DNA from: Aphelocoma coerulescens
Taxonomy: Eukaryota > Chordata > Aves > Passeriformes > Corvidae
Direction: 5' to 3'
Assembly: GCF_041296385.1 (NCBI RefSeq)
Contig: NW_027184078.1
Location: forward strand, 620,001-684,000
Length of the DNA: 64,000 nt
Part shown: piece after piece, positions 43,707-58,161 of the stretch
Layout of the letters: every line of letters begins with the position of its first letter
Numbering within the stretch: position 1 is the first letter of the stretch
Translations under genes and position numbers: made by a program
Notes under the pieces: generated by a model
The model's database searches: none
What the model was told of the DNA's origin: nothing
The model's input: the letters and a program-made list of their open reading frames with translations, nothing else

Positions 43707-44165
43707 TCAGGCAGCACCCGATGTCCTGGCTGGATGTTGTGGGCAGCAAAGTCCCAAGGCAGGGTCTGTGCCAGCCGAGCTTCCTGTGGAAGAGATTTCA
43801 CAAGAGACAGGATTCTGGCCACTGACTGCTTGAAACATCCCTGATCTCCACCTCCCACTAGGTCGGGAATTCCCAGGATGAGGAATTGAAAACATGGATT
43901 CCGGGGGAGATAATTGAATGTCTGCCCTGGGTCTGGCTCTTCTTCTTGCCAAAGCCAATGGCAGCAGCCGTACCCGTGGCATCTTGGTTTCCCTCAGCAG
44001 CTTCAGAAGGTGTTTCTTTATTTCCCCATTCATTCTTTCTACCCGACCCGAACTCTGGGGGTGCCAGGGCGTTTGGAGGTCCCACTGAGTTCCTAAAGCA
44101 GCCAGAACGGCCTGAAGGATCTTTCCTGTAAAATGAGTTCCCCTGTCTGAGTCCATTGCTTCCAC
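43707..44165 (-). pseudogene. pol: Old ERV integrase core remnant
   Basis: Contains DSDRGTHFTGK, TPWHPQSSGRVERMN and a downstream RRRARPRADI segment, matching the D/E part of a gammaretrovirus-like DDE integrase core. The frame degenerates toward the C-terminal domain. Confidence 0.8.
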
Positions 44166-44271
44166 AATCCCATCTCTTGGAATTGTTTATTCCAAACATG
44201 CCTTAAGAACCAATGCAGGGATTGCTGAAGCAGTTGGAAATGCTTCTGCCCCGCTGTGAGCTGCCATGCTG

Positions 44272-44640
44272 TTAGCAGAAGATATTGAAGCCTTCCTGCT
44301 CAGGGCATTTCAGTGCCAGGCTCTTCCAGGCACCCCCAGCTCGGCCCTTTGAGCTGAGCATGCGGGCGCTGAGCTGCGCTTTGTCTCCTTCCCTTTCCTT
44401 AAGAGCAGCGTGTCTTGTCACTCTTTTCCCTTCTGCTGCCCTTGCAGACCCATCCCTAAACACCTTTTCTCCCTCAGGCCAGGGAATGTCTGGTAAATCT
44501 CTCCTAGGCCGGCTCTGGAGCTCTGTCACTTGGCTGCAGCCATGGGTTTCTTGCCAGCCCCGTGTCCAGGGCCGTTCAAACAGGAGGCTGGGTTCAACCC
44601 TTGCCCTGTCCTCAACTCTGAATCCTCCTGTTCCATCCAA
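44272..44640 (-). pseudogene. pol: Old ERV RNase H remnant
   Basis: The segment with PDIPWPEGEKVFRDGSARAA resembles the start of retroviral RNase H, with the usual TDGS motif changed to RDGS. Short and interrupted. Confidence 0.55.
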
Positions 44641-45186
44641 CGAGTTTCATTCTGTAAGAACCGAGCGCTGCTCATCCATTTAGAGGCTCCTTTGGTTAAC
44701 AAAGCTTTACCTTGATGCCAGGCTGGAACAATCAGAGACTCTGCTGCTGTCAGTTTTCAGGCCTCAGTTCCCATTAAAGCCGGGGCTGCACAATTCTGCA
44801 GTAAGACAATGAGGCCACTCTCTGGCCACTGGGTTAAACATTTTAGCCCAGGAATTCCTTTGGCATGGCCCTGTTTAACATCCACGTGCAATTCAAATTG
44901 TTTTTCCCTCTCTGGGAGGGCCAGGGCAGGAGGCTCAGTTAATCTGCTTTTGAAGCCTTGACAATTGTGCTTTCCTTCTGGTGTCCATGATGGGGTTTCT
45001 TGCCTGGCAGGAGAGGAGAGTTGTAGGGAGAGATGCCTGGCTCCAGAAGCGCTGCCTTCAGCAGGGACTCAGTAAGAGGCTGTAACCCCTTCCTTGCCTC
45101 CTCCCTTGGAACAGGGTATTGCTTTTAGACACCACTTGTCCTGGTTGCTTCAGAGGAATTTGGAGAGGCTCCATATCTGATTTTCC

Positions 45187-45477
45187 CTATTTCCCTGGGG
45201 CTGCCCACACTTCTGGGTTCCCTTCAGCAGAGGCCTTCGCAGACATTTGACACCAAGGTCCAGCAGCATTAGCCTCTGAATCTCCTTTGACAATATGAAT
45301 TTGCATTCCCACTTCAGCCACCAAATGCCTTCCCAGTAAATTACAATCACAATTAGGAACAAACAGAAATTGATGCATTTCAAACCCATCCCCTACATCT
45401 ACTAATAGTGCTTGAATAAAACACACCTGCTCCTCTTTCCCACTTATTGCTTGAATAATCAAAAAACTTCTTGACAA
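45187..45477 (-). pseudogene. pro: Old ERV protease remnant
   Basis: Resembles the C-terminal half of a retroviral aspartic protease (FLFVPNCDCNLLGRHLVAEV, compare the LLGRDL motif). The DTG active site is not present in this open segment. Confidence 0.6.
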
Positions 45478-46394: not shown

Positions 46395-46874
46395 TGTTAT
46401 AAATTAAGACTACGCCAATTAGCAACAATTTATGGTTTATTAATTGTAGCAAGTAGAAAGTGAGCAAATTACAGCGCTGGGTGACCGGGGAGTCTGCGCT
46501 CCACCTCTGTCACGTAAGTATTCTAGCTGTCCCCCCTATTTATATGATTTTACTTCCGTCTTCGTGGATTGCTTGAACCACTCTGCGCATGTGCCACTTG
46601 TTGCTAGGGGGTCGTCTTCTGCCTTCTGGTGGTCGTTGGGGATGAAGGAAGTAGTCTTCCTCTTCTGTCCTCTGTTCGACCTTTTGTTCCTTGTCCATTT
46701 TTAGAAGAAGAAGACACAGTATCTGGCATATCATCTTTTTTTTGTTCTTATATGGAAAAAAGAGCTGAACATGCAGTGTTTGGCATGCCACACTCTCCTG
46801 TTATGCAAGCATCTGTACGGCAATACAGTAGTTGCAGAAGCGATACTTAGCAATACATATCCTGAGTATATTTG

Positions 46875-46911
<37 letters not shown>

Positions 46912-47010
46912 TTAAAAGAAGTGATACTTGGCAATACATATCATAAGTATATTTGATTACATATATTGTTTTAAAGGCATCTTCTTTAATAAACAATACA
47001 ATCTTTCACA
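46395..47010 (-). repeat. ERV2 3' LTR
   Basis: On the plus strand it runs from TGTTATAAATTAAG to ATCTTTCACA; transcribed leftward. Contains a (TA)n microsatellite at about 46876-46908. Confidence 0.93.
46876..46908. repeat. (TA)n microsatellite in the ERV2 3' LTR
   Basis: Uninterrupted TA tract, about 4 bp longer than in the other LTR. Confidence 0.85.
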
Positions 47011-47025
47011 ATCCCCCCTTTTTCT
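47011..47025 (-). promoter_or_regulatory. ERV2 polypurine tract
   Basis: ATCCCCCCTTTTTCT on the plus strand is a purine run directly before the 3' LTR on the coding strand. Confidence 0.85.
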
Positions 47026-47044
47026 CTTTATACTCTATTGTTTA

Positions 47045-49183
47045 TTAAACAATCTCATCTTCAAAAATCTTAATTTTCTTCCAGCAATTTTTACATCTGT
47101 TGTAACAATCACAATGCATTATACCCTTGTTGCAAAAACACTCGTAATTTTCTCGTTCTATATCACATTCACAGTAGTCATTTTCGCTTTTATTTCTTTC
47201 ATTAAGCGCAGCTTCATACCTAGCATTAGTAGTTAAAATAAGCAATTTTGCTACATCAAATCGCTCTCTAATAAAGTGTAAAACATATTTTATGATACAA
47301 GGTCCAAATATCAGGCCCAAAATTAACAAAATTAAAGGTCCGGCCAGAGCAGACAACAAGGTGGTCAGCCATGGTGAAACATCGAACCATCCTTCATACC
47401 AAGATTTTCCTGTTTCGCGATCCTTTTTTCTTTGATCTAGTCTTTTCCTAAGTTCGGCCATAGAATCTTGTACTACTCCTGTGTGATCAGCGAAAGAGCA
47501 ACATTCTTCATTTAAAGCGACACATAGTCCTCCTTCTTTTAAGAACAACAAATCTAATCCCCTTCTGTTCTGTAATACGACCTCAGATAGGGATTTTACA
47601 GAAGCAGCTAAATTTTGGATGGATTGCTCTATTCGCCCTAGATCTTCATCCACAGCTGTCTGCAAAGTTTGTATTTCTTTACTTTTTATTATTGAGGCTA
47701 TGCCTGTGCCTGCTCCTACTCCACCTGTTATTAATAATGTAGCTAAAGTGATGGCCGTAAATGGTTCCCTCTTTTGTCTGCTTAGACTTTTTTCAAAATG
47801 ATGTAGTATCTCTTTAGAAGTATGATACATTAGTCGTGGAACAATGATCACTTGTACACAAAATTGGGATTGATTGAAAACATTTAAGGATAAACACGGA
47901 GTTATCCCAATGTCCGAACAGACCCACTTAGCCCCTTGCGTTGGTATGATCTATTTATTTGTTTTATTTTTATACTCACTAATCCTGGAAGAAGGAATAG
48001 TTTTATCGCATAATGATTTATAACCCTCAGGTACGGTGCCAATACATTTTCCTCTTCCTGTTACTGACTGAACTGTTATTCCTTGTGTATAATTTTGTTG
48101 ATCGTTCCACGGGCATTCCTGTGGATTTGAACCATTAGACCATCGGACGTTATTTGGCCTTCCAATTGCCTCATAGTACGGTGGCCTAATATTGTAGCAC
48201 AACCAGCATTCTTTTGTTAAGTTCGGTTTAGAATGGTTTAGGACTAAGTACGAAGCCTGCATTAAGTTTCAAAGAGGATCTTTAGGACTTACTTCAAATG
48301 GATCATTGAGTTTGCCTTCCACATTGACCCTTTTTGTATCATCTTTAGTACTTATTGTAGAGTTTGACTGCCTAACTGTGATAGTTTCTGGTGGTTTCAC
48401 TATTGGGGTCTTTGTGGGTTTAAGGTCTCGAGGTGGATTCAAAGCTGTATTTGGCCCAACAGGAAGTGGATCATGTGGCACCTTTTCTTTAATTATCTTA
48501 AATATGCTCCCTCTGTCCGCTCCTGGCTCCCAGAACCTAATACCCCAAATTTTTCCTAGTAACCATGTATCATCTTCAGGGTTTTGAATGGATATTTCTA
48601 TCCTCCAACAATGGCTGGGGGGTCCACATGAACTCTGAACAGTCCCATCATATCCATGTTTTGGTTGCTTGCACCCTGGTGGTCCCCAAGTTACCTTTAT
48701 ATTTGTATCTCTGGTTGGCGGGTTCCAGTCTGAAGCGACAGTTTCACAGCCCCAGTATCCGCAATAAAAATGCCCCGGGTAATTGCAATAAGGCCTTCCT
48801 GGATTTGACGCTGGACATAGGTAAAAGGCCTTACATTGTGCTTGTCGCTTGGCAACTTGATTACAGCTTTTCCCATGACAGCCTCCGGCGTCTATGGGTA
48901 TTAAAGAAGATAAATGTACTGAGAAATTCCATCGCCCAGGGCTGTGTCGTGTTTGTACCACAGTACTTTCTTGCAAATTGATTAATTTCCATTGCATTGG
49001 CTCGTGTGGATTTCCTGCCCATATTGGCAAACTAAGCAAGCATAGGGTGTACAGGAAAAAGAGCATTCTTTTTGAATTACTCTCATGGCGACTCAGCTCC
49101 AGTAGTGGGTCTCTCAGGCCTTTTGTGGGTCCTCCTCTGCCTCGCCCGTCGACTGGGTTGCAGCCAGCCACGGGGGTGTTCAT
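47045..49183 (-). pseudogene. env: ERV2 env (two premature stops)
   Basis: Single frame interrupted by TGA at 48269-48271 and TAG at 47951-47953. The first ATG is at 49183; a hydrophobic signal (MLFFLYTLCLLSLP) lies about 46 codons in. The surface subunit has GYWGCET and cysteine/proline-rich regions typical of gammaretroviral SU, and a CWLC (CxxC) motif near 48200. Furin site RQKR (about 47770), fusion peptide-like PFTAITLATLLITGG, ISD-like LQNRRGLDLLFLKEGG and CVALNEECC (CX6CC) mark the transmembrane subunit. After the membrane span (about 47.28-47.38 kb) comes a roughly 77-residue tail whose last part has eight cysteines as CEC, CFC, CDC and CKNC, which is not usual for this group. Confidence 0.9.
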
Positions 49184-49251
49184 CTTCTCGGCAGCAGGGG
49201 TCACTTTAAGCCTATTACACCCTTTTGGGAGCTGTAACTCGGCCGCTTAGT

Positions 49252-49803
49252 CTATTTTTCACTCTTTTTCCTGATATCCCAGGCATCCAAAAAGATTTTT
49301 TTACAATGTATTTTTATAATATGGGACTCTAATTGAGCTTTTAAAGCTGTGACCCAGCAATGAAATTCCCCGTGCAATACTGCTAACTGAGATTGTTCGG
49401 ATGACTCGAACAACCCCTCTTTTTCTTCTAACTCCCTAAACCTAGTGTATCTATATCTTTGAGCTGTCCATTCACATTCACTACACCACCAATTATGAAG
49501 GATTGGTCTCTGGGTATGGACCACTTGAGAGCATCCTCCGCAATAAAAAATTATAGGTGCCCTACACTTAATTTGGTTGCAATGAGGGCAAGGCTCATAC
49601 GCAGGCCCTTGTCCTTGTGAGTCTCTCAAATTTCTTAATACCAAAAGTAATTTGGAATGGTTATATGGTGGTTTTGGTAATTGCGAGCGCACTTCTCTTG
49701 GTAATTGATTTATCAATGGTGTGAAGATTAATGAAATCTTCTTATCTAGCCTACGAAGATCTATTGGAAGATCCCATATATCAGGCTGATTATTTCCAAT
49801 CAT
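49252..49803 (-). CDS. ERV2 accessory ORF2: 183-aa protein with three CxxC pairs
   Basis: Uninterrupted frame from ATG to stop between pol and env. Cysteines at residues 72, 75, 80, 88, 91, 107 and 110 form CPHC, CGGC and CSEC, with nearby histidines, a pattern suggesting one or two zinc-binding modules (zinc-ribbon/RING-like). The N-terminal 70 residues carry no domain I recognise; the C-terminal part is charged. It starts 17 bases after ORF1 ends; open codons run upstream to a TTG at 49824. Simple gammaretroviruses have no gene here. It may be a transactivator, nuclear export factor or restriction antagonist, but its function is unknown. Confidence 0.7.
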   Translation of the reverse strand: MIGNNQPDIWDLPIDLRRLDKKISLIFTPLINQLPREVRSQLPKPPYNHSKLLLVLRNLRDSQGQGPAYEPCPHCNQIKCRAPIIFYCGGCSQVVHTQRPILHNWWCSECEWTAQRYRYTRFRELEEKEGLFESSEQSQLAVLHGEFHCWVTALKAQLESHIIKIHCKKIFLDAWDIRKKSEK

Positions 49804-49820
49804 GTATCTTAAATTTCCTT

Positions 49821-49964
49821 TCAATTACAAATACCCCGTCCGCACTTAACAATTTTCCACAAATAATATACAATTAACGACAGCCCTATAGCAACAGCAA
49901 ATCCTCTTACACACTGAATACCAAAGGGTAATTTTAGAAATTGTTGAAATAGGGTCTCCACCAT
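49821..49964 (-). CDS. ERV2 accessory ORF1: 47-aa single-pass membrane protein
   Basis: ATG three bases after the pol stop (TAG CAA ATG), 47 codons, TGA. Residues about 21-36 form a hydrophobic span (GFAVAIGLSLIVYYLW) followed by a basic, cysteine-containing end. This resembles small viral membrane proteins (viroporin or Vpu-like) in layout only; no sequence relative is recognised. Packing between pol and ORF2 argues for a real gene, but shortness limits confidence. Confidence 0.5.
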   Translation of the reverse strand: MVETLFQQFLKLPFGIQCVRGFAVAIGLSLIVYYLWKIVKCGRGICN

Positions 49965-49967
49965 TTG

Positions 49968-51353
49968 CTAAAATACTTGTCGTTTTAGCACAAGCTTAGT
50001 GTCCCCGGGGGAGCTGGTGATCTTCCACTGAGGAGGTGATACAGGTCCCTTGATCCGGCTTGCGTGAGTCCAGCCACGTTCTGTGGTCCTAACTGCTGTT
50101 TCTGTAGTAAGTAAAACAAGATAAGGTCCTTCCCATTTAGGTTTTAGGGTTTCTTCTTTCCAGACTCGGACTAATACCCAGTCCCCAGGTTCAATGTTAT
50201 GGATCTTCAAGTCCAGTGGAGGTCTTTGCATTATTATTCCACGCTTCCACAAGTCATTACGGTGTTTTGCTATTTGAGAAATATACTCATCAATAACTTG
50301 GTCACGTATCAAAATATTCGTTTGGGGTCTTTCTATTTGATATGGCATTCCATACACCATTTCAAAGGCTGATATTCCTAGATCGGCTCGTGGTCGTGTT
50401 CTCAGTATCAATAATGCCATCGGAAGGCATTTAATCCATGATAATTTGGTTTCAATCATTAATTTTGTCAAGACACTTTTAATTTCATCATTCATTCGTT
50501 CCACTTTTCCAGAGCTCTGAGGATGCCATGGTGTATGGTATTCCCATTTAATCCCCAAGCTTTCAATTAAGCCTTTAATAACTTTTGAGACAAAATGTGT
50601 TCCCCGGTCTGAATCAATTACTTCAATCACACCGTATCGAGGTATTATTTGTTCTAGTAACACTTTTATAACTTGATTAGCAGTTGCCTTACAGGTAGGG
50701 AAGGCTTCTACATAATGTGTCAGGTGATCTACCATAACTAAAAGGTACTTATATCTCCCTATTTTTGGTAATTCAGTAAAATCTATTTGCACATGTGAGA
50801 AAGGTCTATATGCTATAGAACGTCCTCCAAGTGGTTTCTGTCTTACTTTGCATCGATTTACTTTTTGGCAAGTTTCGCAGGATTGTGTTACAGCTTTTGC
50901 CACATTATATATACCTATACAGGCAAATAGTCGCTCGAAATGGTCGACTAATGCCTGTGTTCCCCAATGGGTTTTACTATGTAATTTAGAGAGTATATCA
51001 TATGTCAATCCCTTAGGTACTACTTCTCTACCATCAGGTAATATGTACTTCCCATTTTGTTCTTTAGCCCCCATGAGCTGTAACTTCTCTTTTTCTTTTT
51101 GGTTAAAGCTAAAACTTTTGTTCTTGCTTATTTCACAAACTGTAAGAATGGTGTTATAATTGCCAGCTACCCGTTTTGCTTCCTCATCTGCTGCATTATT
51201 TCCCCTAATTTGGTAATTTAGGCCCCGTTGGTGTCCTTTAATGTGTACTATAGCTATCTTTCGGGGGTTTTTTAATGCCTTTAACACTCGTCGAATTAAT
51301 TCAGGATGTATTAATTTTTTCCTTGTGAATTCATAAACCCTCGTTCTTCCCAA
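49968..51353 (-). pseudogene. pol: ERV2 pol, 3' part: end of RNase H and integrase
   Basis: Begins in the RNase H tail (VHIKGHQRG). The integrase has an HHCC domain (ending CETC), the DDE core (QIDFTELP, DSDRGTHF, GKVERMND) and a C-terminal beta-barrel domain (PGDWVLVRVW, KPKWEGPY). Separated from RT by a one-base frame change in a T-rich run near 51311-51353. Ends at TAG 49968-49970. Confidence 0.9.
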
Positions 51354-52948
51354 ATTTTTCCAAATGTATGCACTATTCCATATGCATATTTTGAATCAGT
51401 ATAGATAGTTCCTTCTTTTTCTCCTAATAGCAATAAAGCTCTCCATAAAGCATATAATTCACAGGCCTGTGCTGACCAGCTAGCACTCAGAGGCCCAGAC
51501 TCTACTACTCGAAACTCTCTATTTTCTTTTCTAACTATTGCATATCCTGAAATTCGCTTCCCTTCTACTACTCTTGATGATCCGTCTATAAATAGAACTT
51601 CTCCCTCGTCTAATTCCTCTTCTTCTAAGTCTGGTCGAATTCTTGTCTGTAGTTCAATAGTTTGAAAACAGTCATGTAGTAGGTTATCTTCCTCTCCTGA
51701 ATATAGAAATTCTGCAGGGTTAACTGCCCCAATGGTCTTCAGCGTTAATCTTGAAGACTCAATTAGTATTCCTTCATACTTTAGTAATCGGCTGTCTGTA
51801 AGCCATTTTTCAGCTTTCTGCTGAAGTACTCCCCTTATATTATGAGGGGCATACAAAATTACTTCCCCGTTAAAAGTGATTCGGTTTGTTTCTTCTAGTA
51901 GCAGAGCAGCAGCAGCTATAATTTGTAAACATGTAGGCCATCCTTTACTAACTGGATCTAACAGCTTAGATAAATAGGCTATTGGTTTCTTCTGTCCTGC
52001 CCATTCTTGGGTTAACACCCCAAACGCTGTTCCTTCATATATATTTACAAACAGATGAAAAGGCCGCTTTAAGTCGGGGAGACTTAGAACTGGAGCTTGG
52101 ATTAAATCTCTTTTTAGATTAGCAAATTTCTCATGGTCTTGGGGGGTCCATTTGGGCAATTTATCCTTAATTAATTGCTCGTATAAAAATTTGACCTTAA
52201 AACTATAATTTTCTATCCATTGTCTGCAATACCCAAATAATCCTAAAGCTTGTCTAATTTGTCTCTTAGTGGTTGGCATTGGTAATTCTAAAACTCCTTT
52301 AATGCGTTCTGGATCTAAGATTTTCTTTCCTCTAAATAAGTAATGGCCCAAATACTTTACTTTTTCTTCCACAAATTGTAATTTCTCTACAGATACACGT
52401 AGTCCTTTCTGAGCTAAAAAGTTCAGGAGTCTGATACTTTCATTTCTTACTTCCTCTTTGTTGGTTCCTGCTATCAGCAAATCATCTACATATTGCAGCA
52501 ATGTATTCCCTGCTTGGACTTGGTATTCTTTTAACAGTTCTTCTAGGGCTTGCCCGAACAGGTTAGGAGACTCTGTAAACCCTTGGGGGAGTACTGCCCA
52601 TCTTAATTGTTGTCTACGACCTGTTTCCGGATCTTCCCACTCGAAAGCAAAAAAGTCTCGACTCTCTTCTGCAAGCGGACAAGCCCAAAAGGCATCTTTC
52701 AAATCAATTACACTATACCAAGAATTATGTGGTCCCAATTTACTCATTAGTGTATATGGATTTGCAACTACAGGAAACCGAGTGACTGTTCTTTTATTAA
52801 TTTCCCTCAGATCATGTACAAGTCTATATTTCCCATTTGGCTTTTTAACTGGTAAAATTGGGGTATTAAAAGGTGACATACAAGGTTTTAAAATCCCTTG
52901 TGACAGTAATCGGTCAATTTCTGGCTTCAGTCCCTTTCGCCCCTCCAA
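51311..52948 (-). pseudogene. pol: ERV2 pol, middle part: reverse transcriptase and RNase H
   Basis: RT begins near EGRKGLKPEIDRLL. Motifs KPNGKYRLVHDLR, VIDLKDAFWACPL, LPQGFTESP, and catalytic QYVDDLL (about 52486-52506). RNase H has LFIDGSS, a catalytic glutamate in ACELYAL, and TDSKYAYG. The frame differs from protease (overlap 52914-52948) and from integrase, each by one base. Confidence 0.92.
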
Positions 52949-53459
52949 AGAGATATGGTTCTTGTTTTATTCTTATTGGTATATGGGGCTCAGAAATTTG
53001 AATCTTTATTGGTGAGATATTTAGCTTACTTATTGTATCAGGAGAGTACCAGACATCGGAATTGATCTGTTTTTGATCTTCAGTTGTCAGGGGGTATGTG
53101 TGTACAGTTAATTTCTGATCTTCTACCTTAATTTCTAATTGTAATTCAACAATTAGATCCCGTCCCAAGAGATTAAATTCAGCCTCAGGGACAAGCAAGA
53201 GTTCACCTATCCCAAATTTGTTCTCTGTTTCAAATATAACATTTTTTATTTTGTTCACTTTGAAGGGTTCTCCTTTTGCTCCAATTACCTGAACCTTTTC
53301 ATGGGACATATGGCATCCTTCAGGTATTTGTGTAATAGTAGATTTTTCAGCCCCTGTGTCTACTAAAAAGGTGAACTCTTGTCGGTGGGGACCCAGTTTT
53401 AATTTTATCAAGGGCTCTTGATGACTCCGGTCCCCTATTATATAGAGCCCCTGACTTCC
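52914..53459 (-). pseudogene. pro: ERV2 protease (pro), in frame with gag through UAG
   Basis: In the gag frame after the UAG. Active site LVDTGAEKS, and EFNLLGRDLI near the C-terminal side, typical of retroviral aspartic protease. It continues into the RT N-terminus, where a frameshift occurs before 52914. Confidence 0.88.
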
Positions 53460-53470
53460 CTATTCTACCT
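53451..53470 (-). promoter_or_regulatory. ERV2 gag/pol readthrough site (UAG-GGA-AGU-CAG type)
   Basis: gag ends in TAG followed by GGAAGTCAGGGG. This nearly repeats the murine leukaemia virus suppression context (UAG GGA GGU CAG), in the same frame as protease, so the stop is probably suppressed part of the time. Confidence 0.75.
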
Positions 53471-54878
53471 TTAACATCTCTTCGTCCCTGATTCTTTCTC
53501 TGCAATTCTTTCTCACATGTCCCTTTTTCCCACAATAGAAACAACCTCCTTGTTCCCTTCTTTCCACTATTGTTCTCGGCGACTTTCTGGGGGTTCTAGG
53601 ACCTCTAAGTTGCCCCTTTCTATCTTCTCTAAGCGCAGCCACCATCATTCTTACTTGTTTCTTACTATCTTCTTCTTCTCGTCTTACATACACTTTCTGT
53701 GCTTCCCTCAACAGCTCATCTAATCCTCTATCTTGCCAGTCCTCTAGTTTCTCAAGCTTACGTCTGATGTCATCCCAAGATTTTGCCACAAAATGTGTTT
53801 TTAAGACTGCTTGCCCCAGAGGACTATCGGGGTTAGCCCCTGAGTATAGCTGGAGGGCTTTCCTCAGTCGCTCCAACCATTCTGTGGGGCTCTCATCTTT
53901 CTTTTGCCTTTCGTTAAAGGCTTTACTAATATTCTGGCCACGAGGTACTGATTCTCTAATTCCCTGAATCACTATATTCCTTAAGTCCTCCATATGAGCT
54001 CTATGTAATGAATTTTGATTGTCCCAGTTTGGTTTCTGAAGTGGCCATTTTGTATCTGCTTGGGGACCTTGTGCATGTTGGGCATCCCAGACTCTCATGC
54101 CTGCCCGCCTAATCATATCTTTTTCTTCTGTTGTAAATAACTGCCCCAAAATTGACTGCATTTCGTCCCAAGTATAAAGACTTGGTCCTAAAAATTGGTC
54201 TACTCTTTCTGCTACCCCCAACGGGTCGTCTAGTAATCTTCCCATTTCTGTCCTCTTAAACTCCCGCAAATCTCCGGAGTTCAGGGGGACAGAAACGTAC
54301 CCGACCCCAGGCTGGGGTCCTCCCATGGGTACTTCTCTTAGGGGATACATTTGGGGTTGTTCCTTTTTACTCCTAGTTCGTCTCCTAACAAATGCAGGTG
54401 ACCCCTGTTCGGAACTAGTGTCTCCCGGTGTTATGGGAGCAGCTGGTGGAATCACCGGTGCTGGAGGTGGAGGGACATATGGAGGGGGAATTAACAAGGT
54501 ATCATCCTGTTCCCTTTCTTTATCTCTTTTCTTTTCATTTAATTCGTTCAATGGGAATAGAGTTGTCTGGGGTTTCTCCAGCCACATCTCAGCATATAAG
54601 CTCTCCTCTGGGTTAAAAGGTCTTTCATCATTAACCCAGAAGTTTAGCTGTTGCCTCACCCATTCTTCATCTGACCCAAAAATGGGCCAAATAACATTTT
54701 TCTGTATTTTCTTCCCTCCCCATATTTTAGTGCAGTAATGAATCATTTTCTTCTGACTTTTCCCTATTGATCCGGGAAAGTGTTTCCAATTATTTAACAT
54801 GAATGAGAGAGGGGTATTCTGAGGCACTATGGGTACCTCCCTCATGGGAGTCGAAGGCTTGCTGCCCTTCGCCCCCAT
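53460..54878 (-). CDS. gag: ERV2 gag polyprotein
   Basis: 472 codons from ATG at 54878, chosen because it gives MGAKGSKP, a matrix N-myristoylation signal; the frame is open upstream without an ATG. Late-domain PPPY within IPPPYVPPPP. The capsid starts near PLNSGDLREF and includes the gamma-type segment KDESPTEWLERLRKALQ. Charged linker, then one CCHC knuckle CFYCGKKGHVRKNC. The frame is intact. Confidence 0.93.
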   Translation of the reverse strand: MGAKGSKPSTPMREVPIVPQNTPLSFMLNNWKHFPGSIGKSQKKMIHYCTKIWGGKKIQKNVIWPIFGSDEEWVRQQLNFWVNDERPFNPEESLYAEMWLEKPQTTLFPLNELNEKKRDKEREQDDTLLIPPPYVPPPPAPVIPPAAPITPGDTSSEQGSPAFVRRRTRSKKEQPQMYPLREVPMGGPQPGVGYVSVPLNSGDLREFKRTEMGRLLDDPLGVAERVDQFLGPSLYTWDEMQSILGQLFTTEEKDMIRRAGMRVWDAQHAQGPQADTKWPLQKPNWDNQNSLHRAHMEDLRNIVIQGIRESVPRGQNISKAFNERQKKDESPTEWLERLRKALQLYSGANPDSPLGQAVLKTHFVAKSWDDIRRKLEKLEDWQDRGLDELLREAQKVYVRREEEDSKKQVRMMVAALREDRKGQLRGPRTPRKSPRTIVERREQGGCFYCGKKGHVRKNCRERIRDEEMLKVE

Positions 54879-55255
54879 CTTCTGGAATACCTTCACACAC
54901 ACACACACTCGCTTCCCCTTGTTCCTAGCCCAGTCCCTCGCGGGAGATGGGAAACGTAGTACTTAAGGGTCCACACTCGCTTGGCTCAGTATGTCGAGCC
55001 TCTCAATTGCTATATTCCAGGAAACCCAATCGCGCCCGAACGGTATCCCTGTGAATTATCTTCACAATATACTTACGCGTCCCGCGTCTTCGTCCGGACT
55101 TCAGTGCACTAAATTTTTATGGGATTATACCGGTTTTCATTTGCTCCACTTTCTAGAATTTATGTTCGTCGGTAAAGGTGAAGGTGGGCAGCTGTTCTCA
55201 AGGCCGAGGAGAAACTCGGGGCGCCTCCCTGGGAGACCGCAGCCCACCGTTCCTT

Positions 55256-55273
55256 ATCCGAGTCACGGCACCA
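55256..55273 (-). promoter_or_regulatory. ERV2 primer binding site, tRNA-His type
   Basis: On the minus strand TGGTGCCGTGACTCGGAT, complementary to the 3' end of tRNA-His, five bases from the 5' LTR. HERV-H elements use the same primer. Confidence 0.85.
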
Positions 55274-55278
55274 TAAAT

Positions 55279-55759
55279 TGTTATAAATTAAGACTACGCC
55301 AATTAGCAACAATTTATGGTTTATTAATTGTAGCAAGTAGAAAGTGAGCAAATTACAGCGCTGGGTGACCGGGGAGTCTGCGCTCCACCTCTGTCACGTA
55401 AGTATTCTAGCTGTCCCCCCTATTTATATGATTTTACTTCCGTCTTCGTGGATTGCTTGAACCACTCTGCGCATGTGCCACTTGTTGCTAGGGGGTCGTC
55501 TTCTGCCTTCTGGTGGTCGTTGGGGATGAAGGAAGTAGTCTTCCTCTTCTGTCCTCTGTTCGACCTTTTGTTCCTTGTCCATTTTTAGAAGAAGAAGACA
55601 CAGTATCTGGCATATCATCTTTTTTTTGTTCTTATATGGAAAAAAGAGCTGAACACGCAGTGTTTGGCATGCCACACTCTCCTGTTATGCAAGCATCTGT
55701 ACGGCAATACAGTAGTTGCAGAAGCGATACTTAGCAATACATATCCTGAGTATATTTGA

Positions 55760-55791
<32 letters not shown>

Positions 55792-55890
55792 TTAAAAGAA
55801 GTGATACTTGGCAATACATATCATAAGTATATTTGATTACATATATTGTTTTAAAGGCATCTTCTTTAATAAACAATACAATCTTTCACA
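55279..55890 (-). repeat. ERV2 5' LTR
   Basis: Copy of the LTR at 46395-47010 with a shorter (TA)n tract. Followed on the right by the CTCC target duplication. Confidence 0.93.

Positions 55891-56470: not shown

Positions 56471-58161
<1,691 letters not shown>

What the first reader, a model, noticed from the sequence alone, without database searches (positions are those of the whole stretch)
49252..49964. Two packed extra genes between pol and env in a gammaretrovirus-like provirus
The pol stop, three bases, a 47-codon ORF with one membrane span, 17 bases, then a 183-codon ORF with CPHC/CGGC/CSEC. Both are uninterrupted although pol and env around them carry four lesions. Simple gammaretroviruses have no genes here; this layout recalls complex retroviruses. 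I recognise no relatives.
Basis: partly seen in the sequence, partly recalled or inferred. Interest (0 to 1): 0.9.

Follow-up and report, generated by a model that had tools for sequence, protein, structure and literature searches.

The report
Swapped accessory genes in bird retroviruses
A provirus in what is likely a bird genome carries two conserved extra genes between pol and env, one of them with a relative in the same place in a different class of retrovirus in that genome, and they likely make proteins that handle the host cell, so retroviruses taken to be simple would prove to be complex.

Summary
A young gammaretrovirus-type provirus (minus strand, 46395-55890) has ORF1 (47 codons) and ORF2 (183 codons) between pol and env. 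The same pair sits at 13 places in this genome. Both show purifying selection between diverged copies (ORF2 p 4.7e-9; ORF1 p 1.6e-4). ORF2 is exchanged apart from its direct neighbours: against one sister group it differs six to twelve times more at silent sites than the pol end and env start beside it. ORF2 is homologous to an ORF in the same slot of a class II (alpha-type envelope) ERV of this genome, with identical spacing of seven cysteines. The next gamma-type lineage (60-63% in integrase) fills the slot with another conserved Cys-rich gene of 216 codons whose arginine-rich end lies over the env start. No confident Pfam or PDB match was found for either protein. My reading: real viral accessory genes in a swappable pol-env slot, likely made from a spliced mRNA, ORF2 likely acting on a host target. 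Function, splicing and zinc binding are inferred. The host was not identified; bird is inferred from named relatives. Ten literature searches listed no paper recognisably describing these genes.

The parts
49821..49964 (-). ORF1, 47 codons, one predicted membrane span, same frame as pol, 3 bases after the pol stop
   Evidence: 13 copies, 11 without a stop; L001 vs L013 9 silent to 3 replacement changes, p 1.6e-4
49252..49803 (-). ORF2, 183 codons, Cys-rich core (residues 72-110) predicted to bind zinc
49474..49590 (-). Cys cluster of ORF2, residues 72-110, spacing C-2-C-4-C-7-C-2-C-15-C-2-C, same spacing in the class II relative L074
49968..51353 (-). 3' part of pol (integrase, MLV-type C-terminal domain) and its stop
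   Evidence: relatives P0002, P0003 and P0004 end within a few residues of the same place and P0008 slightly later
50101..50124 (-). best-scoring splice-acceptor-like site upstream of ORF1; the next ATG is that of ORF1, the second that of ORF2
   Evidence: rank 111 of 4693 AG sites scored on this strand; found in 12 of 13 copies; it lies inside pol coding sequence, so its conservation is not independent evidence
49083..49205 (-). other-frame open stretch over the env start with an arginine-rich motif, matching the C-terminal end of the gene in the slot of the next lineage
   Evidence: found in 12 of 13 copies (in L007 the open stretch begins only inside it)
48269..49183 (-). 5' part of env, from its ATG to the first of two in-frame stops
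47045..48262 (-). rest of env (second in-frame stop at 47951-47953), gamma-type transmembrane subunit
51311..54908 (-). gag, pro and the 5' part of pol; pro follows the gag stop in the same frame; two frame changes in pro/pol
55279..55890 (-). 5' LTR, followed by a primer site read (recalled) as tRNA-His at 55256-55273
46395..47010 (-). 3' LTR, preceded by a purine-rich tract; target duplication GGAG on both sides

Best explanation
Between pol and env this gammaretrovirus-type provirus has two conserved viral genes, ORF1 and ORF2, that would be translated from one spliced mRNA, and ORF2, a predicted zinc-binding protein with a relative in a class II retrovirus, likely acts on a host target such as a defence factor rather than on viral RNA. 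Shown here: the pair is present at 13 places, ORF1 and ORF2 show purifying selection between diverged copies, ORF2 is exchanged between backbones whose pol end and env start are nearly alike, and a homologue lies in the same slot of a class II ERV. Inferred: splicing from the leader to the site at 50101, ORF1 as first and ORF2 as second reading frame of that mRNA (the arrangement of HIV vpu-env, recalled), ORF1 as a small membrane protein, ORF2 as a soluble zinc-binding adaptor. The host-target step is inferred from the gene occurring in two retrovirus classes and being replaced without its direct neighbours, which a protein tied to one virus's own RNA element would tolerate badly. Confidence that these are real viral genes: about 0.93; that ORF2 acts on a host target: about 0.45.
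For: 13 copies with integrase end, ORF1, ORF2 and env start in order. ORF2 L001 vs L010: 53.8 silent and 68.2 replacement changes, dN/dS 0.22, p 4.7e-9 (3.4e-4 with transition weight 5); residues 1-110 p 2.4e-9. ORF1 L001 vs L013 p 1.6e-4, 0.0024 with weight 5. Exchange: L001 vs L010 dS 0.137 in the integrase end, 0.10 in ORF1, 0.858 in ORF2, 0.07 in the env start; Fisher 5e-11 and 2e-15, with identity falling and recovering near the gene's edges. Class II homologue L074: 34% over 77 residues, 0 of 1000 shuffles reach it, also 0 of 1000 with cysteines fixed; identical Cys spacing; the reciprocal search returns the window's ORF2 at E 2.3e-5. Its element is class II by Pfam: Integrase_Zn and Avian_gp85. 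The slot gene of the next gamma lineage shows a similar pattern: middle 0.70-0.73 identical while integrase is 0.87-0.93 and env 0.94-1.00.
Against: No RNA data: no spliced transcript or protein has been seen. The ORF2 model is unusable (pLDDT 42.8), so zinc binding rests on the Cys pattern and a weak profile match to a ribosomal protein, eL43 (E 0.087; its zinc ribbon is recalled). Within the close group ORF2 is not distinguishable from neutral (5 silent, 12 replacement, p 0.25), and residues 111-183 only reach p 0.062. The donor that I favour in the leader (about 55076) fell below the cut-off of my table, which lists only 55247. The start contexts of both ORFs are weak (my reading). Window ORF2 against the other class II ORFs directly is borderline: 6, 3 and 1 of 500 Cys-fixed shuffles reach the score for L079, L080, L081; the L010 type does better (0 of 500 for each). 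The exchange in L010 was not confined to ORF2: its 5' LTR has 53 mismatches in 518 columns to the window's and differs from its own 3' LTR, which weakens the argument that ORF2 changed alone. The arginine-rich end of the next lineage's gene would fit an RNA-binding regulator as well.
Confidence: 0.5

Rival explanations
1. ORF2 and the gene X of the next lineage are regulators of the virus's own RNA (Rev- or Tat-like): a Cys-rich domain with, in X, an arginine-rich RNA-binding stretch encoded over the env start.
For: X ends in a nearly invariant CCREDGTPRG..PSRRARQR stretch in the relatives that reach that far. The same kind of stretch is open in the other frame over env in 12 of 13 copies of the window lineage. 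The enlarged ORF2-family profile resembles X weakly (hhalign probability 22%; 0 of 200 column shuffles reach the score, but the best Cys-fixed shuffle all but ties, 30.07 vs 30.11).
Against: In the window lineage the arginine-rich frame is not joined to ORF2: a TAA stands directly before the open stretch and ORF2 is in another frame. Env in the overlapping frame can explain its conservation: between L063 and L064 the overlap has 3.2 silent and 23.8 replacement changes in the X frame (dN/dS 2.4), and there the motif has changed to GRRHRQR and GRRQRQR. ORF2 occurs in two retrovirus classes.
Confidence: 0.3
2. ORF2 is a virion or assembly component (a packaged zinc protein) rather than a regulator or host antagonist.
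For: Only the Cys-rich core and its occurrence in two retrovirus classes; nothing specific.
Against: The gag-env deletion copies lack the N-terminal half of ORF2 and the stretch that remains carries stops although gag and env there stay alike, so those copies were amplified without an intact ORF2 of their own; help in trans cannot be excluded.
Confidence: 0.12
3. The region is a passenger: a stretch captured once, kept open by the youth of the copies, with no function.
For: The window copy is young (LTRs one substitution apart), and the close group alone shows no clear selection (p 0.25).
Against: Strong silent excess between diverged copies and a homologue in a class II element in the same slot.
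Confidence: 0.04

Closest known systems
Simple gammaretroviruses (MLV type)
   Same: Gag p30, MLV-type integrase C-terminal domain, TLV_coat envelope, gag and pro in one frame with a stop between; 4-base target duplication
   Different: Two conserved genes between pol and env; [quoted passage not shown]
Lentiviruses, the region between pol and env (vif, vpr, vpx, tat, rev, vpu; recalled)
   Same: Accessory genes in the same slot; a small membrane-protein ORF and a Cys-rich ORF; first reading frame followed by a second in the predicted mRNA
   Different: Not compared directly by alignment; no PDB sequence match of ORF2 names a lentiviral protein; different retrovirus class
Class II ERVs with alpha-type envelope of this genome (L074, L079-L082)
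   Same: ORF in the same slot; for L074 homology to ORF2 with identical Cys spacing
   Different: Class II integrase and Avian_gp85 envelope by Pfam for L074 and L079-L081; the ORF overlaps the pol end; ORF1 was not found there (one search gives only the 13 gamma-type places)
Gene X of the next gamma-type lineage (L046 and relatives P0122-P0135)
   Same: Same slot, Cys-rich, purifying selection, diverged middle in like surroundings
   Different: Homology to ORF2 unproven; has an arginine-rich end; no ORF1
Crocodilian ERVs with captured host genes (PMC4299795, passages seen)
   Same: An extra ORF in an ERV, in one case without loss of a viral domain, with purifying selection reported
   Different: Those are host genes (KIT ligand, nectin3); none of the ORF2 matches that I read is a host gene (L001-L030 and L074 of the 57 rows)

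Membership tests
Gammaretrovirus-like (class I) provirus | MLV-type Gag p30, integrase C-terminal domain and TLV_coat envelope | tested here: met
   PF02093 2.1e-29, PF18697 6.3e-12, PF00429 1.2e-73
Gammaretrovirus-like (class I) provirus | gag and pro/pol in one frame, separated by a stop | tested here: met
   pro follows the gag stop in the same frame
Gammaretrovirus-like (class I) provirus | 4-base target duplication | tested here: met
   GGAG on both sides
Gammaretrovirus-like (class I) provirus | no genes beyond gag, pro, pol, env (simple genome) | tested here: not met
   two conserved ORFs between pol and env
Complex retrovirus with accessory genes | conserved viral gene outside gag, pro, pol, env | tested here: met
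   ORF2 p 4.7e-9, ORF1 p 1.6e-4 for silent excess
Complex retrovirus with accessory genes | expression from an extra spliced mRNA | not testable with these tools
   acceptor-like site at 50101 only; no RNA data
Complex retrovirus with accessory genes | protein acts on host or on viral RNA | not testable with these tools
   no function assay
ORF2 family shared with class II ERVs | sequence homology over the Cys core | tested here: met
   L074: E 9e-11 pairwise, 0 of 1000 shuffles; for L079-L081 directly from the window borderline
ORF2 family shared with class II ERVs | same slot, after pol and before env | tested here: met
Gene X family | sequence homology of ORF2 to X | tested here: inconclusive
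   hhalign none with the first profile; hmmsearch: L008, L003 and L002 at 8.9, 8.3 and 8.2 bits just above the best of 400 shuffles (8.1), window ORF2 at 6.6 below two of them; enlarged profile weak
Gene X family | C-terminal arginine-rich stretch in the same reading frame as the Cys core | tested here: not met
   present in the window only in another frame behind a stop
Rev-like RNA export protein (for X) | arginine-rich motif | tested here: inconclusive
   RRARQR nearly invariant in A2 but altered in L063 and L064, and the stretch overlaps env; likeness to HIV Rev is recalled
Rev-like RNA export protein (for X) | binds a viral RNA element and promotes export | not testable with these tools
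   none
Known Pfam, PHROGs or PDB family | significant profile or sequence match of ORF1 or ORF2 | tested here: not met
   ORF1 and ORF2 in Pfam and PHROGs, only weak matches below cut-off; ORF2 in PDB; ORF1 was not searched in PDB
Known fold (for X) | structural match | tested here: inconclusive

The most novel reading that the evidence does not exclude
Birds carry complex retroviruses of both the gamma and the alpha type: they share a pol-env slot filled by a trading stock of Cys-rich, zinc-binding accessory proteins of undescribed kind, exchanged across retrovirus classes, an independent counterpart of the lentiviral vif-to-vpu region.
Probability: 0.55. Interest if true: 0.9.

Novelty: new variant of a known kind. 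Interest (0 to 1): 0.82.

Why it matters
Gamma-type retroviruses serve as the textbook simple retroviruses. Conserved accessory genes there, one with a relative in a class II element and moved between backbones, would mean that accessory genes arose or spread outside lentiviruses, deltaretroviruses and spumaviruses, and that birds, whose antiretroviral defences are less explored, have driven viral counter-genes of their own. The families are unnamed, have recent copies in one genome, and can be tested directly.

Tried and rejected
Rejected: ORF1 as a cut-off tail of pol. Relatives P0002, P0003 and P0004 end within a few residues of the window's pol, P0008 slightly later, and none of these four reads on into ORF1; a fifth, the zebra finch gene model P0042, runs from integrase into a stretch like the arginine-rich end of X. 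Rejected: chance ORF2. Rejected: insert in one copy. Not shown: ORF2 as a member of the X family. Led nowhere: viral-contig scans with ORF2 and integrase (no relatives; the tool says that records near the window's genome may be left out), PDB and PHROGs searches, AF2 of ORF2 with two sequences, structure look-ups of X (no listed fold stands out). The PDB hit of the arginine-rich end (9vfj_D, E 2.4e-4, named as a photosystem chain, matched over 30 residues) was set aside as a likely match of basic residues, without a further test. A tblastn of ORF1 and ORF2 against the window found no internal duplication.

Rows left out: the dN/dS tables use 8 of the 13 loci (L001-L004, L008-L010, L013); the others are near-duplicates; codons that are stops in either row were skipped. 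Alignment A3 used 8 rows: the window, P0001, L002-L004, L008, L010, L013; L005-L007, L011 and L012 were left out as near-duplicates and L009 for its stop. Alignment A2 left out P0122 (98% identical to its first row). The gag pieces were tested on 11 of the 17 deletion loci. Of 82 matches I read L074 and four fetched regions (L079-L082); L075-L078 were cut out by the tool and not analysed further. Of the 57 rows I read L001-L030 and L074; the others were not fetched. In one search only 92 of 10462 candidates were scored, so the counts are lower bounds.

Literature: ten searches listed no paper whose title or abstract start describes these genes; passages were seen in PMC4299795, PMC3265301, PMC9967133, PMC2717909 and PMC10820513. 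A 2012 mBio survey of avian ERVs (recalled) and PMC3925403 on turkey LPDV are not held, so either may hold a prior description.

Full report
What is there. The provirus lies on the minus strand, 5' LTR 55279-55890 and 3' LTR 46395-47010, with target duplication GGAG, a primer site I read as tRNA-His (recalled), gag, pro/pol, ORF1, ORF2 and env. The LTRs differ by one substitution and a 4-base repeat-length change. Pro follows the gag stop in the same frame, which is ordinary for this class; pro/pol has two frame changes and env two in-frame stops.

Chance. No simulated sequence of 5000 reached 183 codons; 1642 of 5000 reached 47. ORF2 is therefore real by length, ORF1 not by length.

Copies. 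A genome search with ORF2 gave 57 matches. Thirteen places carry integrase end, ORF1, ORF2 and env start in order, and a search with ORF1 gives the same 13 places and no other, 11 of them without a stop. ORF2 runs uninterrupted from its ATG at 10 of 13; L008 has lost the ATG, L009 has one stop, L013 breaks off near residue 110. A further 17 loci (L014-L030) match ORF2 mainly from residue 88 on, in front of env, all with stops; the 11 of these that I tested have gag directly before it, so they are gag-env deletion copies. The only relative at E 1 or better in a set of 5.8 billion public proteins is P0001, 183 residues, 12 differences, no gap.

Selection. Between the L001 and L010 types ORF2 shows dN/dS 0.22 with 53.8 silent and 68.2 replacement changes (p 4.7e-9; 3.4e-4 if transitions are weighted five to one). 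Residues 1-110 carry the signal (p 2.4e-9); residues 111-183 do not reach significance (p 0.062). L010 against L013: p 9e-11. ORF1, L001 against L013: 9 silent, 3 replacement, p 1.6e-4 (0.0024 with the weight). Within the close group ORF2 is not distinguishable from neutral: 5 silent and 12 replacement for L001 against L002, p 0.25. Selection here means selection on the viruses before and between insertions, not on the host.

Exchange. L001 and L010 differ at silent sites by 0.137 in the integrase end, 0.10 in ORF1, 0.07 in the env start, but 0.858 in ORF2 (Fisher 5e-11 against integrase, 2e-15 against env). In 100-base windows identity is 0.92-0.98 up to ORF1, 0.69-0.84 over most of ORF2 and 0.93-0.99 from env on. 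The plain reading is that old ORF2 alleles are moved by recombination. The exchange was not confined to ORF2: L010's 3' LTR has 20 mismatches in 642 columns to the window's 5' LTR, but its 5' LTR has 53 in 518, and its two LTRs have 51 mismatches in 528 columns besides gaps, so that copy is a mosaic in other ways too. One close copy, L002, has identical LTRs (651 of 651), so the group was active recently.

A relative in another retrovirus class. The weakest of the 57 ORF2 matches (E 7.8e-4) led to L074. There a class II pol (Integrase_Zn) is followed at once by an ORF of 167 codons and then by an alpha-type envelope (Avian_gp85, E 4.9e-19). The ORF is 34% identical to ORF2 over 77 residues, with the same cysteine spacing 2-4-7-2-15-2; none of 1000 shuffles reach its score, nor any of 1000 with cysteines fixed. 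Searching back with it gives 82 matches, among them the window's own ORF2 (E 2.3e-5) and many at about 28-50% identity. The four regions that I fetched (L079-L082) have such an ORF between pol and env, in L082 with a stop inside; Pfam pieces of L079, L080 and L081 are class II with Avian_gp85, L082 was not run. Direct similarity of the window's ORF2 to L079, L080 and L081 is borderline (6, 3 and 1 of 500 Cys-fixed shuffles reach it); the L010 type is clear (0 of 500 each).

The next gamma-type lineage. The next integrase group (60-63% identical, dozens of copies among the 92 scored) has a gene in the slot too, X, 216 codons, whose ATG overlaps the pol stop. X has 14 public relatives at 42-98% identity, unnamed and without a Pfam domain. 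In its genome search, by my count of the rows, 74 matches span all of it at 94-100%, 63 of them without a stop. Before the env overlap it shows dN/dS 0.30 for L046 against L061 and 0.12 for L063 against L064; inside the overlap the second pair shows 2.4 in the X frame, so env may be what holds that stretch. Its middle is more diverged than its surroundings (0.70-0.73 identical while integrase is 0.87-0.93 and env 0.94-1.00). It has a conserved Cys cluster and, in the 14-row alignment, a nearly invariant arginine-rich end over the env start in another frame; in L063 and L064 that motif has changed. The same kind of stretch is open over env in 12 of 13 copies of the window's lineage but is not joined to ORF2. 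A possible history is that ORF1 and ORF2 replaced most of an X gene in an ancestor and left its dual-coded end; this is inference. An AF2 model of X is fair (best pLDDT 78.5) and has no clear structural match. Whether X and ORF2 are distant kin is open. With the first profiles hhalign found nothing; hmmsearch put three close copies just above the best of 400 shuffles and the window's ORF2 below two of them, and in the reverse search L064 above the best of 360. With the enlarged ORF2 family hhalign gives 22% probability, and the best of 200 Cys-fixed column shuffles nearly equals it.

How it likely works. The best acceptor-like site before ORF1 (50101, rank 111 of 4693) is found in 12 of 13 copies; in 11 of these 12 the next ATG is that of ORF1, and L008 lacks the ORF2 ATG. 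A second acceptor-like site lies 20 bases before the env ATG, with CAG in 12 of 13 copies and altered in the window copy; it was not scored. I infer one spliced mRNA for ORF1 plus ORF2 and another for env. ORF1 would be a small membrane protein, ORF2 a soluble zinc-binding protein. Because its kind occurs in two retrovirus classes and changes without its direct neighbours, I favour a host target; the rival is a regulator of viral RNA, for which the arginine-rich end of X speaks. None of this has been shown by experiment.

Known or new. [quoted passage not shown] Ten searches listed no paper that recognisably describes these genes; two likely papers are not held. Accessory genes as such are a known kind, so I file this as a new variant.

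Noticed in passing
window 47045-47230 (minus strand): The env transmembrane protein continues past the membrane span into a Cys-rich tail of about 50 residues, unlike the short tail recalled for MLV.
   Followed up: no
window 46540-46791 and 55424-55675 (minus strand): Both LTRs hold a sense ORF of 83 codons (GTG start) that runs up to the TATA-like site and is rich in charged residues; it may be chance.
   Followed up: no
L014-L030: Copies with gag next to the last part of ORF2 and env, lacking pol and ORF1 (gag tested on 11 of 17); a likely non-autonomous group.
   Followed up: partly
L046 lineage, e.g. G000 contigs C55, C100, C561: Dozens of near-identical copies with open pol and X, many on short contigs; a recent burst or an amplified chromosome region.
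   Followed up: no
L066 and L067 (L010 provirus): 5' and 3' LTR about 83% alike in the longest match, so this provirus is chimeric.
   Followed up: partly
window 43707-45477 (minus strand): Fragments that read like an older retroviral integrase and protease beside the young provirus (read by eye from the ORF list).
   Followed up: no
window 57181-58161 (plus strand): A C2H2 zinc-finger ORF with 84-base repeats next to the provirus.
   Followed up: no
L079-L082: Class II ERVs whose slot ORF overlaps the end of pol in another frame (and, in L080 and L082, the start of env).
   Followed up: partly
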